The notes under the pieces were generated by a model. It was not told where the DNA came from. It saw only the letters and a program-made list of their open reading frames with translations, and did no database searches. Shown here in pieces: positions 18,593 to 26,758 of a DNA stretch of 34,339 nt (the first letter of the stretch is position 1; every line of letters starts with the position of its first letter). This stretch comes from Candidatus Zipacnadia bacterium (lineage in GTDB: Bacteria > Armatimonadota > Zipacnadia > Zipacnadales > Zipacnadaceae). The DNA is taken from contig JALGTU010000013.1 in assembly GCA_029821195.1 (NCBI GenBank), positions 1-34,339 on the forward strand. The letters run 5' to 3'. Made by a program: the position numbers and the translations under genes.

Positions 18593-19681
18593 CTAGCCGC
18601 ACCGGAGCTCGGCGATAATGGCGTCAGCCATTTCGCTGGTGCCTGCGGCGGTAGGGTCATCCCGGCTCGGTTTCAGGTCGTAGGTGACTTGCTCGCCTCG
18701 GCGCGTGACCGTGGCTACGGCCTGTTCGAGCCGGTTGGCAGCTGTTTCTTCGTCCAGATAGCGCAGCATCATCACCGCCGAAAGAATAGTCGCGGCGGGG
18801 TTAACCTTGTTCTGGCCCTTGTACTTGGGTGCGCTGCCGTGAGTCGGCTCGAATACGGCGACACTATCGCCGATATTGGCGCTCGGTGCCACGCCCAGGC
18901 CCCCGACCAGCCCGCAGGCCAGGTCGCTGATGATATCGCCGTACAGGTTAGGCAGGACCAGCACGTCGTACAGTTCGGGCTTCTGCACGAGCTGCATACA
19001 CATATTGTCAACGATGCGGTCCTCGAATTGGATGCCGCTGTCGGCGTACTCCTCTGCGACCTTCCGGGCGGTTTCCAAAAATAGCCCGTCGGAGTGCTTC
19101 ATGATGTTGGCCTTGTGGACGGCGGTAATCTTCCGGCGGCCGTTGGCCAGAGCGTATTCAAAGGCGAACCGTACAATGCGGGCGGAAGCGAACTCGGAGA
19201 TCGGCTTGATGCTGATGCCCGAGTCCTCGCGGATGCGGGTGCCGGTCAACCGATGAATCCGTTCGATTATCTCAGCGCACTCCTGCGTTCCGCGGGCAAA
19301 TTCAATGCCTGCATAGAGGTCCTCTGTATTCTCCCGGACGATGACCAGGTCCACATCAGGATAGCGGGACTTGACCCCTTCGTAGTACTTGTAGGGGCGC
19401 AGACAGGCGTAGAGATCGAGCTGTTTGCGCAGCGCGACATTTACGCTGCGGAAGCCGGTGCCCACCGGCGTAGTAATGGGGCCCTTGATGGCCACCTGGT
19501 TCTTCTGTATCGAATCCAGTACCGACCGGGGCAGCGGGGTACCCTCTGTCTCCATTACATCAGCGCCGGCCTGCTGGATATCCCACTGGATAGGTACCCC
19601 TGTGGCTTCCACGCATCGGCGCATGGCCTCGGTGACTTCCGGGCCAGTCCCATCACCAGGAATCAGCGTTATGGTATACAT
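18593..19681 (-). CDS. NAD-dependent isocitrate dehydrogenase / isopropylmalate dehydrogenase family
   Basis: [28 protein letters not shown]..., [62 protein letters not shown]. Confidence 0.9.
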
Positions 19682-20525: not shown

Positions 20526-21713
20526 TTAGGCACCGAGCGCTGCTTTCAGGCGCTCAACTCCCCGCTTGATGTCCTCCACCGAGCAAGCGAAGCTCAGGCG
20601 CAGAAAGCCCTCCGCCCCGAAGGCTGAGCCGGGCACGGTGCTGATCAGGCTGTCCTCCAGCAGGTACTCGGCTAGTTCCAGTGACGTAGCTATCTTCCTG
20701 CCGGCCAGTTCGCGGCCCAGATAGGCCGAGATGTCCGGGAAGACGTAGAAAGCGCCGGGAGGCATATTGCACTCGATGCCCTCGATCTCGCGCAGGGCCC
20801 CGACAAAGAAGTCCCGACGCTGCTCGAACTGCTCGCGCATCTGAGCCACGCAATCCTGTGGCCCGGTTAGGGCAGCCAGTGCGGCGTACTGGGAGATTGA
20901 GCAGGGATTGGAAGTCTCCTGGCTCTGGATGCTCCCGGCCTTGGCAGCAAACTGCTGGGGCCCGACCAGCCAGCCGATCCGCCAGCCGGTCATTGAATAG
21001 CTCTTGGCGACCCCATCGGCAAGGATGGTGCGCTGCCTGGTCTCTTCATCGAGCATAGCGATGCTCAGGTGCTCCCGGCCTTGGTATATCAGATGCTTGT
21101 AGATTTCGTCGGAGATGATGGTCAGATCGTGCTCGGCGGCAATGGCGGCGAGCCCTTCGAGTATTTCTCGTTCGAAGATTCCGCCCGTCGGGTTGCTGGG
21201 GCTGTTAATCAGTATGGCCACGGTCCGGGAAGTTATCGCCTCGCGCACCTCGTCCAGATCGGGCTGAAAGCCGCGGCTGCTGTTGGTCATTATGATGACC
21301 GGGTGGCCGCCGCACAGCTCAATCTGGACCGGGTAGCTGACCCAGTACGGCGCGAATACGATGACCTCGTCGCCCGGGTCCAGCATTGTCTTCCAGATGT
21401 TCATCAGCGCGTGCTTGCCCCCGTTGCTGATGCAGACCTGGTCAGCGTCGTAATCCAGGCCAAACTCCGTCTGCAGGCGGCCGACGATAGCCGCTTTGAG
21501 TTCAGGGATGCCCGAGGCAGCGGTATACTTCGTGTGACCCGCCTCCAGGGCCGCGCAGGCCGCCGCACAGATATGCTCCGGGGTGGGGAAGTCCGGTTCG
21601 CCGACGGCAAATGATATCACGTCGAGTCCTTCGCCAATCATCGCCTTAGCCCGCGCGGCCATACCAATAGTGGGCGAAGGCTGGATATGGGAGGCTCGTT
21701 GGGAGATCTTCAT
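20526..21713 (-). CDS. PLP-dependent aminotransferase (aspartate aminotransferase-like, fold type I)
   Basis: MKISQRASHIQPSPTIGMAARAKAMIGEGLDVISFAVGEPDFPTPEHI...NSPSNPTGGIFERE...SDEIYKHLIYQG...GVAKSYSMTGWRIGWLVGP. Confidence 0.93.
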   Translation of the reverse strand: MKISQRASHIQPSPTIGMAARAKAMIGEGLDVISFAVGEPDFPTPEHICAAACAALEAGHTKYTAASGIPELKAAIVGRLQTEFGLDYDADQVCISNGGKHALMNIWKTMLDPGDEVIVFAPYWVSYPVQIELCGGHPVIIMTNSSRGFQPDLDEVREAITSRTVAILINSPSNPTGGIFEREILEGLAAIAAEHDLTIISDEIYKHLIYQGREHLSIAMLDEETRQRTILADGVAKSYSMTGWRIGWLVGPQQFAAKAGSIQSQETSNPCSISQYAALAALTGPQDCVAQMREQFEQRRDFFVGALREIEGIECNMPPGAFYVFPDISAYLGRELAGRKIATSLELAEYLLEDSLISTVPGSAFGAEGFLRLSFACSVEDIKRGVERLKAALGA

Positions 21714-21733
21714 AGCAGTACCTCTTGTCGCTG

Positions 21734-22651
21734 TCAGGATGGCTGCTGGGAATGATGGTGGTCCTCGACGCGCGCATGCCACGGTGGGGCTAGTTCCCAG
21801 TGGAGGCTACGCAGTTCGTGAACGACCTCTGGGTAGTGGGGCCGAATCTGTAGCGCCTGGCTCAGTTCGCGGGTGGCCTCATCCCGGCGCCCCAGGCGGG
21901 CGTAGGCGGCACCGAGGTGGTAGTGCAGTTCGGCGTTGAGCTGGTGCAGTGACTGGCGCACCGCCCGCTCCAAGAAAAACGTGGCATTCTTCAGGTCACC
22001 CAGCTTGTAGTAGGCCCACCCCAGGCTGTCAACAAAGGCGGCATTCAGCGGCGCCAACCCGGCGGCCTGTGTCGTCAGTTTCAGCGCCAGGTCGAGCTTG
22101 ACACCCGCTTCGGCGTAGGCGTAGCCCACATTGTTGAGCTCACCGGCGTAAGCCAGTGCGGGGATTCTTCTCGCAGTGTAGCCGAACTTGGTTATCTGCA
22201 AATGCGCAGACAAGAGCTTGTGGCCAAGCTCGGGCTGCCCGGTATGCAGGTAGGCCGTGCCCAATTCGTAGTAATAGGGGCGATCGGTCAACAGGTGCGC
22301 TTTTTTCAGCGCGGAGATCGCGGGCTTGTAAGCCCCCACGTACACGTATATACGACCGGCTCGCTCGAGCACTGCTGGGTTATCGGAAGCCAGCTCTACA
22401 GCCCGGTTAGCGCAGCGCACCGCCCGCCCAGCGCGGACCGGTTCGCTAGCTGCTTCCGTTGCCTGCTGGATGTAGCGCAGGGCGATGAAGTCGGTGCGGA
22501 GTTCGTCGAGCTGCGCCAGCGGCTGGCAACCACTCAGTGTGACCACGAGCACCGTGCCCCAGACTACCAGAATCCCGCGTGCAAGCCCTCGGCACAGCCC
22601 GGGCTGATCGCCGCCAAACGACGGGTTACTGAGGTGTGAAGGCCGATACAT
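21734..22651 (-). CDS. TPR-repeat lipoprotein
   Basis: Hydrophobic leader with lipobox (GILVVWGTVLVVTLSGCQPL), then TPR-like repeats (FVDSLGWAYYKLGDLKNATFFLERAVRQ, AELHYHLGAAYARLGRRDEATRELSQALQIRPHYPE). Confidence 0.8.
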   Translation of the reverse strand: MYRPSHLSNPSFGGDQPGLCRGLARGILVVWGTVLVVTLSGCQPLAQLDELRTDFIALRYIQQATEAASEPVRAGRAVRCANRAVELASDNPAVLERAGRIYVYVGAYKPAISALKKAHLLTDRPYYYELGTAYLHTGQPELGHKLLSAHLQITKFGYTARRIPALAYAGELNNVGYAYAEAGVKLDLALKLTTQAAGLAPLNAAFVDSLGWAYYKLGDLKNATFFLERAVRQSLHQLNAELHYHLGAAYARLGRRDEATRELSQALQIRPHYPEVVHELRSLHWELAPPWHARVEDHHHSQQPS

Positions 22652-25600
22652 AATAATAGGCGATACCGATGTAAAGAGTGGCTTCGGCCACGGCTGGTGT
22701 CGAGTAGACGCCGTAGACGGTGCGGTGCTCCCATTTTACCTGGCCGTCGGCCAGATCCAGGGCGTATAGGACCCCATCCTTGGAGCCGATGTAGACAATA
22801 TCCCCGGTAATCACCGCCGAGGCCAGTACTTCTTCGCCGGTTTGGTATTGCCAGATTTGCTTACCATTCGCGGTGTCCAGGCAATATACCTTGCCGTCGG
22901 CACAGCCGACTACCAGACGGTCGCCGGCGATCGCCGGCGCGGACCTGACCATTCCACCCAGCTCTGCTTGCCACTTTATCTGGCCGCCGGCCAGGTCAAC
23001 GGCATACATCGAGGAGTCATCGGAGCCACAGAAGACTGTTGAGCCGGATATTGCCGGTGCCGACGAGATGGAGCCGTTGGTGTCCAGTCGCCAGCGCACC
23101 TGGCCATCGGCGGTGTGGGCGGCGTACAGTCCGTTGTCCCACGAGCCCACCACCACCAGATCACCACTGACAGCCGCAGAGGCAACGATCTGCTGCTCGG
23201 TCGGCAGCTCCCAGTTTACGTCGCCCCGGCTCCAGTCAATCGCCCATAGGCTGCCGCTTTCGTCGCCCACGAAGAGCTGGCTGCCGTGCACCGTGCCGGC
23301 TGACCGGACGCCAGCGCCCAACTCGTGCTGCCACTGCTGCTGGCCGGTAGAGCGATGCAGGGCGTGGAGCCGGCCGGCGAGGGTGCCAAAGATCACCAGG
23401 TCCTCGACTACCACCGCTGCCGCTTCAATCTGCTCCCGGCCCTCCCGAGTCCAGCGGATATGTCCTTCCTGGCTGTCGAGGGCGTAGAACACACCATCGC
23501 GCGAGCCAATGTAGACAATATGGTCGCTGACCACCGGGGAGGCTACCACGGGCGCGCCGGTGCGCACCGACCACAACTCGCGCAGCGGGGGAGCGAGGGT
23601 CTGTTCGGCAAAGGCACCGTGCTGAGCACTCCCCCCAAACATCGGCCATTGGTTCCCTGGGGTCGCTTGCTGCTGTTCCGCCTCGATTGTGTCCAGAGCG
23701 CGGTTGATGTACTGCTCAGCAGTCGGAGTGGCACTAAGGGCGCTCGCCTGGTTCAGGCTCTCCCGCGCCTGGTCAAATTCCCGTCGCAGGATCTGGGCCA
23801 GGGCCTGCGCATAGTGTAGCTGAGCGAGGCGCGGATGGTTGCGCAGTGCCTGTCCAAGCTGGCCGAATTGAGTATCCGCGGGCGAAAGATGCCCCAGCAC
23901 GTCCCCGGCTGCCCACGGCGCATCCGCTTGCGAGGTAATCCGGTTAATGAGCATAGTAGTGTTACGCGGGTTGTCAACCCTCTTCAGAGCCTGGGTGATA
24001 TGCTCGGTAAGCTGGGGGTTGTCATCACTGAGGACCTCGATCAAAGCCGAGGCCGAGCGCGGATCATCAGCACTTATTCGGCCCAGGGCCTGCGCCGCCG
24101 CGAGCTGCTGGTGCCGGTCGCCGGATCGCAGCCAGGTGGTCAGCTCACGTTTCATCAACTCCAGATAATCTGCGGCCAGACGGCGCACTTCGATCTGGTC
24201 GTCATCCAGGCCGGCCACCAGCGCCGGAATCAGGTCCTCGTGCAGGAGGTCGGCCAGATTCCGGTACGTTACCCGGCGAATCTGAGGCGACTCATCCGTG
24301 AGCAGTGAGGTCAGGATGGGGGACATAGCAGCTTCCAGTTCGTCGGCGCGGCAGAACCAGTACTCAGTCTCGGTATCGTTGGCTGCGGCACTGCGGATGA
24401 TCAGCTCCATCTCCTCGGGGGAGATGCTCAGTTCCTCGCGATGGTCATCAATGATGTGCAACTCCTCGTTGCCCATCAGCAGGCCAAACTTCTGGAAATT
24501 GTTCAGTTCGCGGGTGAGGAGGTCCTGGACGTCGCGCAGCTTCAGCGCTTCCTCGGATACCCAGTCGTCAACTTGCTCGGCAAGCTGCTCGTGGACCAAC
24601 TCGTAGTTGCGCTGCTTGTCCTTGCTCAGCCCGCGTACTAACCGGAAGTCCACCATCTTGGCCAGAACGCGCTCGACGGTGCGGCGGTCCTGGCCGACTT
24701 CCTGGGCGATTCGCTCCAGCGAGCGCGTCGCCTTCAGCTCCGAGGAAACCGCCATCCGCTTGAGGATGGTGCGGGCGATACCCCGCTCGAGCATCGGCAG
24801 TTGGCGGAGGGCGTCGTGCAGATAATCGCGCAGGATCGTCGCGGCGCGGCCCAGCTTCTCGTAGTTGCGCTGGGTGATGACCTCTGCGTCCGCGGGCATC
24901 TCTTCGTACAGTCGGTGGCAGACGATCTGGAGTTGTGCGGGCTCGATCCCCTCGCGGGTGAGGTCCTCGAGCAGTTGGTCAACTAGCTTCCGCTCGACTT
25001 GTAGGCCAAAGTTCACTGCCGGCTGGACGATTGCTTTCTCCGCCTGAGTGCGGTCGAGCTTGTGCAGCCGGTAGACGTTTTGCATTACTTCGGGCAGGTC
25101 GTCGCGCAGCTCGTAGAGCTCGCCCACGTAGTCTTCGCGGATGCTGAGCAGCACGCGCAATTCGTCGTCTTGCGCTGCCAGAGCCTCCTTGACTTGCTGA
25201 ACGAAGGTGTCTCTAACCCGACCTCCCAGCTTCACGAATAGCTCTTCAGCCTCGTCCAGGAATACGACCACGCGCTTGTGGGAAGTGGCGGCGACGTGGG
25301 TGAGCAGATCACAGAGGCTGGCATCGCGGCTGATCTCGCCCAGCTCGCAGCCCTCTTCTTCCGCGGCCCGGAGGGCAGCCTCGCGAATACTGGCCACGGG
25401 ATCGTCCTCGCAACGGGCATATACCGCCAGCCAGGTGCCGGCTTCGTCGAGGTGTTCCTCGTCCCGTCCCTGCATTCGCGCCATCACGCCGGCTTTGATC
25501 AGGGACGACTTGCCGATCCCGGAGCGCCCAAACAGCACCGTCATAGGCTGGCGGGCAATCAGGTCAATGAGATCCTGGATCTCCCGCTCGCGGCCGAAGA

Positions 25601-26576
25601 AGAGCTCGCTATCCTCGGTGTCAAAGTAGTCGAGGAACCGGTAGGGGCCGCCGCGCAGCACGCTCAGGTCCTTGGTCTGCCGCCGGCTGGCGTGGTGGCG
25701 GTACTGGAAGCGATCGTGCAGCCGGGCAAAGAAATCGTTGAACGAGCCTGCCTCGCGCACCAGCAGGTGCCGCTGCGACTGGCGCTGCTTTAACCAGTTG
25801 ATCACCTTGGGCTGGAGACGGTGGTATGCCACGCTCCCCGGGCTCTCCAGCTTCAACTCGGTGTACATCTTTGCGTCAGCCACCGGCACCTGCGGGTTGA
25901 CCCAAAAGATTTTGCCGCCCTCCGCAGGCATGAAGTCCAGGAACGGCTCGTCGCGGTCACTGTAGGCGGTGAAGATAGACAGCACACGGAAGGCCTGATT
26001 GAGCAGGGCGCGCGTTGGCTCCAGGCCGGCGCCAATCTCCTCAGGAGTCAGGGGCAGGTACTTCCTGGCCAGATCGCCCCCGCACTTTACTACTACCACC
26101 CGCGAAGACCCCTCCAGCGCTACCGACATTATCTCGGGATCGTCAACTCCGGCCACCAGAAGGTGATAGTCGGCTTCCGGCTCCAGGTGCTGAGTACTGA
26201 GAGCCTGCTCGAGCAGATTGTGCGGCTCCATCGTGAAGATGGTAGGGAAGTAGCCGTCCTGGACCAGATGAGCCAGTTGGATGTGCCCCTCGGAGGGCCG
26301 GGCGTCGGCCAGCCGGGCCCGCAGTAGTTGGCAACGGCGGTCGTCTGCCGGCACCTGGCGGGCAAACTCGGCCAGGGCAGCGGGACCGCGGCGCTCCATG
26401 GGCAAGTGTTGGAAAGACTCGCCAACCTGCTCGCGCGCCAGCTCCTGGAGAATCTGACACATAGGTAGGTCGCTGGGCGGTATGCGTACCTCGCTGCCAA
26501 TGAACAGCACGTGGCGCCCCAGCCGGTGCCGCCGCGACATAATGTGATCGGCGATGATGCCTAGCATTGCTATCAC
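22626..26576 (-). CDS. Multidomain STAND NTPase: SIR2-like N-terminus, nSTAND1-type NTPase, winged-helix, HEAT-like repeats, C-terminal PQQ-like beta-propeller
   Basis: VLFIGSEVRIPPSDLP...YHLLVAGVDDPEIM...VVVVKCGGDLARKYLPLTPEEI...IFTAYSDRDEPFLDFM (SIR2-like order of motifs); FFGREREIQDLIDLIARQPMTVLFGRSGIGKSSLIKAGV (Walker A); KRVVVFLDEAEELFVKL (Walker B); SPQIRRVTYRNLADLL (HEAT-like); repeats of the type IVYIGSKDGVLYALDLADGQVKWE (PQQ-like). Likely start MLGII at 26567. Confidence 0.85.
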   Translation of the reverse strand: MIAMLGIIADHIMSRRHRLGRHVLFIGSEVRIPPSDLPMCQILQELAREQVGESFQHLPMERRGPAALAEFARQVPADDRRCQLLRARLADARPSEGHIQLAHLVQDGYFPTIFTMEPHNLLEQALSTQHLEPEADYHLLVAGVDDPEIMSVALEGSSRVVVVKCGGDLARKYLPLTPEEIGAGLEPTRALLNQAFRVLSIFTAYSDRDEPFLDFMPAEGGKIFWVNPQVPVADAKMYTELKLESPGSVAYHRLQPKVINWLKQRQSQRHLLVREAGSFNDFFARLHDRFQYRHHASRRQTKDLSVLRGGPYRFLDYFDTEDSELFFGREREIQDLIDLIARQPMTVLFGRSGIGKSSLIKAGVMARMQGRDEEHLDEAGTWLAVYARCEDDPVASIREAALRAAEEEGCELGEISRDASLCDLLTHVAATSHKRVVVFLDEAEELFVKLGGRVRDTFVQQVKEALAAQDDELRVLLSIREDYVGELYELRDDLPEVMQNVYRLHKLDRTQAEKAIVQPAVNFGLQVERKLVDQLLEDLTREGIEPAQLQIVCHRLYEEMPADAEVITQRNYEKLGRAATILRDYLHDALRQLPMLERGIARTILKRMAVSSELKATRSLERIAQEVGQDRRTVERVLAKMVDFRLVRGLSKDKQRNYELVHEQLAEQVDDWVSEEALKLRDVQDLLTRELNNFQKFGLLMGNEELHIIDDHREELSISPEEMELIIRSAAANDTETEYWFCRADELEAAMSPILTSLLTDESPQIRRVTYRNLADLLHEDLIPALVAGLDDDQIEVRRLAADYLELMKRELTTWLRSGDRHQQLAAAQALGRISADDPRSASALIEVLSDDNPQLTEHITQALKRVDNPRNTTMLINRITSQADAPWAAGDVLGHLSPADTQFGQLGQALRNHPRLAQLHYAQALAQILRREFDQARESLNQASALSATPTAEQYINRALDTIEAEQQQATPGNQWPMFGGSAQHGAFAEQTLAPPLRELWSVRTGAPVVASPVVSDHIVYIGSRDGVFYALDSQEGHIRWTREGREQIEAAAVVVEDLVIFGTLAGRLHALHRSTGQQQWQHELGAGVRSAGTVHGSQLFVGDESGSLWAIDWSRGDVNWELPTEQQIVASAAVSGDLVVVGSWDNGLYAAHTADGQVRWRLDTNGSISSAPAISGSTVFCGSDDSSMYAVDLAGGQIKWQAELGGMVRSAPAIAGDRLVVGCADGKVYCLDTANGKQIWQYQTGEEVLASAVITGDIVYIGSKDGVLYALDLADGQVKWEHRTVYGVYSTPAVAEATLYIGIAYYYVSAFTPQ

Positions 26577-26683: not shown

Positions 26684-26758
26684 TGGTGGGCCTGGGCGGA
26701 TTCGAACCACCGACCGATCGGTTATGAGCCGACTGCTCTGCCGCTGAGCTACAGGCCC
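26684..26758 (-). tRNA. tRNA with CAT anticodon (elongator Met or Ile2)
   Basis: Minus strand GGGCCTGTAGCTCAGCGGCAGAGCAGTCGGCTCATAACCGATCGGTCGGTGGTTCGAATCCGCCCAGGCCCACCA: 7-bp acceptor stem, anticodon loop CTCATAA, T-loop TTCGAAT, encoded CCA. Confidence 0.93.

What the first reader, a model, noticed from the sequence alone, without database searches (positions are those of the whole stretch)
22626..26576. SIR2-like / STAND NTPase / HEAT / PQQ-propeller fusion: candidate undescribed Avs-like sensor-effector
The single 1316-aa protein has, in order, a SIR2-like N-terminal domain (about 26567-25760), a GREREI...GRSGIGKSS STAND NTPase (Walker A about 25503-25531, Walker B about 25229-25275), a winged-helix-like region, HEAT-like repeats (about 24360-23940) and about eight PQQ-type repeats (about 23660-22630). 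Effector + STAND + C-terminal repeat sensor is the plan of Avs-type antiphage STAND proteins, where SIR2 effectors occur. Inference: a PQQ-type propeller in the sensor position would suggest a different ligand class from the known TPR-like Avs sensors. Function is unproven; it could equally be a housekeeping signalling protein.
Basis: partly seen in the sequence, partly recalled or inferred. Interest (0 to 1): 0.85.

Follow-up and report, generated by a model that had tools for sequence, protein, structure and literature searches.

The report
Core STAND protein with dead SIR2
A large switch-type protein that looks like a bacterial antiviral sensor is in fact a single-copy, vertically inherited core gene of a whole bacterial class (Ca. 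Zipacnadia), and its 'toxic' NAD-cutting domain has lost every catalytic motif, so it probably does a constant cellular job instead of killing infected cells.

Summary
The anatomy is confirmed. One ORF (start ATG at 26567, not GTG at 26576) encodes an N-terminal SIR2 fold, an nSTAND1 ATPase, HEAT repeats and an eight-bladed BamB-type propeller. AlphaFold models are confident, and Foldseek's best hits for the N-terminus are all defence SIR2s (SPARSA, KomC, DSR2, ThsA, EfAvs5). The Avs-type sensor-effector reading is not supported. The STAND-HEAT part is in 46/46 genomes of the class Ca. Zipacnadia (Armatimonadota), and the SIR2-like part was found in 45/46, always once. Its tree follows taxonomy and RpoD, and it has fixed neighbours: a TPR lipoprotein, an aminotransferase and often isocitrate dehydrogenase downstream, dnaG-rpoD upstream in many families. 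No homologue of the SIR2-like part was found outside the class, in plasmids or in phages. In 43/43 distinct SIR2-like domains the catalytic Asn (TTNxD), the His/Asn of HG/NG and the Ser of GAGxS are replaced, although the domain is under strong purifying selection. Eight of eight ordinary SIR2 proteins from the same class keep TTNxD and HG/NG but are patchily distributed. I read it as a core STAND switch or scaffold with a pseudo-SIR2 module. What it senses or controls is unknown.

The parts
22626..26567 (-). whole gene: pseudo-SIR2 / nSTAND1 / HEAT / eight-bladed propeller protein, 1313 aa from the conserved ATG
25722..26567 (-). SIR2-like N-terminal domain, catalytically dead by sequence
   Evidence: AF2 pLDDT 90.7, Foldseek to SPARSA/KomC/DSR2/ThsA/EfAvs5, PADLOC profile in 26/26, motif loss in 43/43
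26226..26228 (-). codon of Glu114 (ATG numbering), at the place of the catalytic Asn of TTNxD
26079..26081 (-). codon of Gly163, at the place of the catalytic His of HG
24495..25646 (-). nSTAND1 NTPase (PF20703) with its helical/winged-helix part
25506..25529 (-). Walker A GRSGIGKS
   Evidence: GK and the second S invariant in 26 homologues
25251..25271 (-). Walker B VVVFLDE
   Evidence: Asp invariant
23622..24329 (-). HEAT repeats, the fastest evolving part
22629..23525 (-). BamB-like eight-bladed propeller
21734..22651 (-). TPR lipoprotein (VTLSGC lipobox), overlaps the end of the main gene; conserved next gene in 24/24 loci of families f1-f8
20526..21782 (-). class I aminotransferase (aspartate type), conserved neighbour in 24/24 loci of families f1-f8
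18593..19681 (-). isocitrate/isopropylmalate-type dehydrogenase, conserved neighbour in 19 loci
26684..26758 (-). tRNA-Met (CAT) upstream of the gene in this genome

Best explanation
It is a class-wide core STAND switch or scaffold of Ca. Zipacnadia whose effector-position SIR2 domain is a conserved pseudoenzyme. Proposed working: the HEAT repeats and BamB-like propeller hold a constant host protein partner; ligand binding and NTP exchange on the intact nSTAND1 ATPase drive oligomerisation; the pseudo-SIR2 domain then acts as a self-assembly or partner-binding (possibly nucleotide-binding) module, not an NADase. The output serves a constant cellular function, perhaps linked to the envelope through the co-encoded TPR lipoprotein. 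Shown here: fold, intact ATPase motifs, motif loss, single-copy vertical inheritance, conserved neighbourhood, purifying selection. Inferred: oligomerisation, non-enzymatic output, envelope link, non-defence role.
For: SIR2-like part once in 45/46 class genomes and in 0/245 other phylum genomes. STAND+HEAT part in 46/46. It is the only nSTAND1 protein in nearly every genome: G029 and G045 have one more, and the two hits in G031 are pieces of one broken gene. Gene tree keeps every sampled GTDB family together; 13/18 splits shared with RpoD against 0.2 in shuffles, distance r = 0.87. TPR lipoprotein and aminotransferase directly downstream in 24/24 loci of f1-f8; rpoD, within about 1.7 kb, upstream in 20 genomes of five families. 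Motifs lost in 43/43 but kept in 8/8 ordinary SIR2 proteins of the same class, which are patchy, 17/46 genomes. SIR2-like dN/dS 0.12-0.17, among the lowest of the domains. Propeller length fixed and conservation (41%) close to that of the ATPase (44%).
Against: No expression, knockout or biochemical data. A core gene can still be immune. Conserved gene order among vertically inherited genes need not mean shared function, and the neighbours differ in f9/f10 (mreC downstream). The related protein of the sister lineage has another N-terminal domain on the same STAND-HEAT-propeller body, a modularity typical of conflict systems.
Confidence: 0.6

Rival explanations
1. It is a fixed core innate-immune protein: an Avs-like STAND that senses phage through HEAT and propeller, and acts through the pseudo-SIR2 domain by recruiting or assembling a separate effector.
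For: Architecture matches effector-STAND-sensor; the SIR2 fold is closest to defence SIR2s; nSTAND1 is named from bacterial conflict systems (PMC8195603); HEAT is the fastest evolving domain.
Against: Universal, single copy and vertical; no PADLOC-type neighbours in the window; absent from plasmids and phages; propeller not diversifying; neighbours are dnaG-rpoD and metabolic genes.
Confidence: 0.2
2. The SIR2-like domain has a changed but real catalytic activity, for example cleavage of another nucleotide, using the family-specific invariant Ser154, Arg156, Lys161 and Tyr106, and is switched on by the STAND part.
For: Strong purifying selection on the domain and a set of invariant polar residues around the old HG position.
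Against: All three NAD motifs are lost, and the residues that replace them vary freely (Asn place: E, D, S, G, C, A, T; His place: G, A, L, C, P), which does not look like a new catalytic residue at those places.
Confidence: 0.12
3. Avs5-type NAD-depleting defence gene.
For: Same domain order SIR2-STAND-repeats; EfAvs5 is among the structural matches (9jap, E 8e-6).
Against: Asn and His/Asn of the active site missing in 43/43, residues that Avs5 needs (PMC12931631); core distribution; different sensor.
Confidence: 0.04

Closest known systems
Avs5 (AVAST type 5, SIR2-STAND)
   Same: N-terminal SIR2 fold, central STAND ATPase, C-terminal repeat region; EfAvs5 is a structural match of the SIR2 part
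   Different: catalytic Asn and His/Asn absent, sensor is HEAT plus eight-bladed BamB-like propeller, core single-copy gene of one class instead of a patchy defence gene
SIR2-APAZ / SPARSA, ThsA, DSR2, KomC SIR2 NADases
   Same: SIR2 fold; PADLOC SIR2-Argonaute profile hits 26/26; alignment to SPARSA SIR2 shows TTNFDD facing lttalDD and KIHGD facing KLLGD
   Different: GAGxS, TTNxD and HG/NG motifs lost; fused to nSTAND1 instead of APAZ or SLOG
nSTAND1 proteins of bacterial conflict systems (Kaur et al. 2021, PMC8195603)
   Same: PF20703 ATPase with intact Walker motifs, N-terminal signalling module, C-terminal repeats
   Different: universal in the class, fixed architecture, no EAD or protease partner seen in the window
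BamB / PQQ-repeat eight-bladed propellers
   Same: fold and sequence (Foldseek E 1e-24; PF13360 E 1e-48)
   Different: fused to a predicted cytoplasmic STAND protein without signal peptide or clear membrane segment
STAND-HEAT-propeller protein of a sister Armatimonadota lineage (UBA5419 and relatives, G258-G262)
   Same: STAND and HEAT alignable at 30-36% identity; propeller too where complete
   Different: N-terminal domain is not SIR2-like (HD-like by eye, no Pfam hit)

Membership tests
Avs / Avs5 antiphage STAND | tripartite effector - STAND ATPase - C-terminal repeat sensor | tested here: met
Avs / Avs5 antiphage STAND | catalytic SIR2: TTNxD plus HG or NG | tested here: not met
   0/43 Asn, 0/43 His or Asn; requirement from PMC12931631
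Avs / Avs5 antiphage STAND | patchy, defence-associated genomic distribution | tested here: not met
   46/46 class genomes, no PADLOC neighbours in the window, vertical tree
Avs / Avs5 antiphage STAND | phage-protein recognition and protection | not testable with these tools
   needs phage challenge
SIR2 NADase | SIR2 (DHS-like) fold | tested here: met
   AF2 pLDDT 90.7 and Foldseek
SIR2 NADase | GAGxS NAD-binding motif | tested here: not met
   first Gly 43/43, Ser 0/43
SIR2 NADase | catalytic Asn and His (or Asn) | tested here: not met
   positive control 8/8 ordinary SIR2 of the class keep them
nSTAND1 NTPase | PF20703 over curated cut-off with Walker A and B | tested here: met
   195 bits against cut-off 27.1; motifs in the alignment
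BamB-like propeller | eight-bladed fold and PQQ_2 / BamB profile | tested here: met
BamB equivalog | NCBIfam TIGR03300 cut-off and secretion as lipoprotein | tested here: not met
   170 bits against 285; no signal peptide seen

The most novel reading that the evidence does not exclude
An NLR/Avs-like STAND protein was domesticated into an essential housekeeping switch of a bacterial class: its SIR2 domain lost NADase activity and became a nucleotide-sensing or filament-forming regulatory module that reports on NAD+/ADP-ribose state or envelope assembly through a BamB-like propeller and a co-encoded TPR lipoprotein.
Probability: 0.3. Interest if true: 0.8.

Novelty: new variant of a known kind. 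Interest (0 to 1): 0.56.

Why it matters
STAND proteins and SIR2-like domains of this kind are now almost automatically read as immunity genes. This family is a strong counter-example: a defence-looking architecture that is core, single copy and non-diversifying, with a dead effector domain kept under purifying selection. It offers a natural case for asking what a SIR2 fold does besides NAD+ hydrolysis (assembly, ligand sensing), and how immune STANDs and housekeeping STANDs turn into each other. It also warns that fold or profile hits to defence SIR2s need a check of the catalytic motifs.

Tried and rejected
Fusion of the main protein with the TPR lipoprotein in G020 (L075, 1597 aa frame): rejected, the join lies at an ambiguous base, so it is probably an assembly artefact. 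Apparent loss of the TPR gene in L061 and L078: rejected, antisense shadow ORFs hid it; tblastn finds it. Apparent absence of the gene in G022: rejected, the STAND part is there but cut by the contig end. Plasmid and phage copies of the SIR2-like part: none. Defence island around the window gene: no PADLOC hit of weight in 13 neighbours (one weak PrimPol hit to a TPR protein). PDB profile search with the N-terminal alignment alone was too weak to prove SIR2 homology (ThsA E 0.32); the structure search decided it. Pfam on the window's own N-terminus gave nothing.

Full report
What is there. The ORF at 22626-26576 (minus strand) is real and uninterrupted. All homologues start at the ATG three codons downstream of the GTG, so the protein is best taken as 1313 aa from 26567. 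Its order is SIR2-like domain, nSTAND1 ATPase, HEAT repeats, propeller. AlphaFold2 with the family alignment gives the N-terminal 310 residues at pLDDT 90.7; the Foldseek matches listed against the PDB are all defence SIR2 proteins: SPARSA, KomC, DSR2, ThsA, SIR2-HerA and EfAvs5. The C-terminal 617 residues model at pLDDT 92.7 as HEAT-type helices followed by an eight-bladed propeller with an exact 40-residue period, the eighth blade closed by a strand from the start of the propeller. Foldseek places it with designed Cake8 and with BamB. There is no sign of a bound PQQ role; 'PQQ' is the name of the repeat.

Where it occurs. The SIR2-like part was found exactly once in 45 of 46 genomes of the class, and in none of 245 other genomes of the phylum. 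The STAND+HEAT part is in 46 of 46; the missing one (G022) is cut by a contig end. Record titles of the same contigs name Candidatus Zipacnadia, candidate division WS1 and Armatimonadetes; the class is described in PMC10290634, where the words 'defense' and 'phage' do not occur. As a control for how such genes usually behave, the ordinary SIR2_2 family is patchy in the same genomes (17 of 46, different places), whereas the only nSTAND1 hit in 43 of 46 genomes is this gene (G029 and G045 have one more, and G031's two hits are pieces of one broken gene).

Inheritance and context. A tree of the protein keeps every sampled GTDB family together. Against RpoD of the same 21 genomes it shares 13 of 18 splits (0.2 expected after shuffling labels), and patristic distances correlate at 0.87. 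The five unshared splits include two well supported in the protein tree that agree with GTDB families, so RpoD is the noisier marker there. A TPR lipoprotein gene follows with overlap or near overlap, then a class I aminotransferase, in 24 of 24 loci of families f1-f8 with enough contig; an isocitrate-type dehydrogenase follows in 19. rpoD lies directly upstream, within about 1.7 kb, in 20 genomes of families f3, f4, f5, f6 and f8, with dnaG before it where looked at. In the outer families f9 and f10 the downstream neighbour is mreC. PADLOC finds no defence neighbours of weight in the window, and tblastn finds no plasmid or phage copies of the SIR2-like part.

The SIR2 domain is dead by sequence. 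HMMER alignment to the SPARSA SIR2 chain puts TTNFDD opposite 'ttalDD' and KIHGD opposite 'KLLGD' in the most distant members, fixing the registers. In 43 distinct homologous domains the Asn of TTNxD is E 22, D 10, S 4, G 3, C 2, A 1, T 1; the His of HG is G 23, A 12, L 4, C 3, P 1; the Ser of GAGxS is never Ser; yet the first Gly, the Lys before and the Gly after the His are 43/43. The Avs5 paper reports that N110A, D112A and E202A, and replacement of the NG-motif Asn153 by Ala or Gln, abolish immunity (PMC12931631). Eight of eight ordinary SIR2 proteins taken from the same class keep TTNxD and HG or NG, among them one in this very genome (L169). The domain is nevertheless among the best conserved parts (45% mean pairwise identity), with dN/dS 0.12-0.17 between close relatives. 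dS is high in two of the three pairs, so those values are approximate; the closest pair (G006/G004, dS 0.09 for this domain) gives 0.17.

The sensor side. The propeller has an almost gap-free alignment and 41% mean identity, near the ATPase (44%); HEAT is lower (32%) and has the highest dN/dS in the closest pair. This is not the behaviour of a sensor diversifying against phages, though a slowly evolving sensor for a conserved phage protein cannot be excluded by these numbers. Outside the class, a sister lineage (families f39 and f40, e.g. UBA5419) has the same STAND-HEAT-propeller body with a different N-terminal domain, so the effector-position module has been exchanged or replaced once at a deep level.

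Mechanism. Best supported: a core ATP-dependent switch or scaffold, with HEAT and propeller as partner-binding surface and the pseudo-SIR2 as a non-catalytic assembly or ligand-binding module. SIR2 domains of ThsA, KomC and Avs5 are known from helical assemblies (titles of PDB entries), so an assembly role without catalysis is plausible; this is inference. The TPR lipoprotein suggests, but does not show, an envelope link. Rivals are a fixed immune sensor with a separate effector (0.2), an altered enzyme (0.12) and a classical Avs5-like NADase (0.04).

Verdict. I rate it a new variant of a known kind (STAND protein with an unusual, dead SIR2 module and core status), with real interest as an unexplained class-defining protein.

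Noticed in passing
L063:5533-7674 (+), L060:12004-14085 (-); in this genome G000:C200:4473-6566 (L145): RpoD of the class carries about 300 aa of Big_5 (Ig-like) domains inserted between sigma region 1.2 and region 2 (Pfam). The insert is present in 44 of 46 class genomes, and full-length RpoD aligns through it. Ig-like repeats in a primary sigma factor are very unusual; weak matches in five other phylum genomes were not examined.
   Followed up: partly
L164:4227-6824 (+) and L165:2845-5529 (-): In the sister lineage the STAND-HEAT-propeller gene is preceded by a conserved 865-894 aa protein with an N-terminal cold-shock domain (NCBIfam hit to a retron Se72-type effector domain).
   Followed up: partly
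L164:6827-10633 (+), L162:4076-7921 (-): The N-terminal domain of the sister-lineage STAND proteins looks HD-like by eye (H..HD pattern) in f40 but seems to lack the pattern in f39; no Pfam hit.
   Followed up: no
L071:12995-13960, L071:11994-13028, L072, L069:11612-12490: In the outer families f9 and f10 the gene sits directly upstream of mreC (two mreC-like genes in f10), a cell-shape locus.
   Followed up: partly
L169 (G000:C207:1-3500): The same genome has an ordinary SIR2 protein (followed by TPR-like sequence) with intact TTNFD and LHG motifs, a more likely real NADase defence gene.
   Followed up: partly
window 26684-26758 (-): A tRNA-Met gene lies about 115 bp upstream of the gene in this genome; not tested for conservation.
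   Followed up: no
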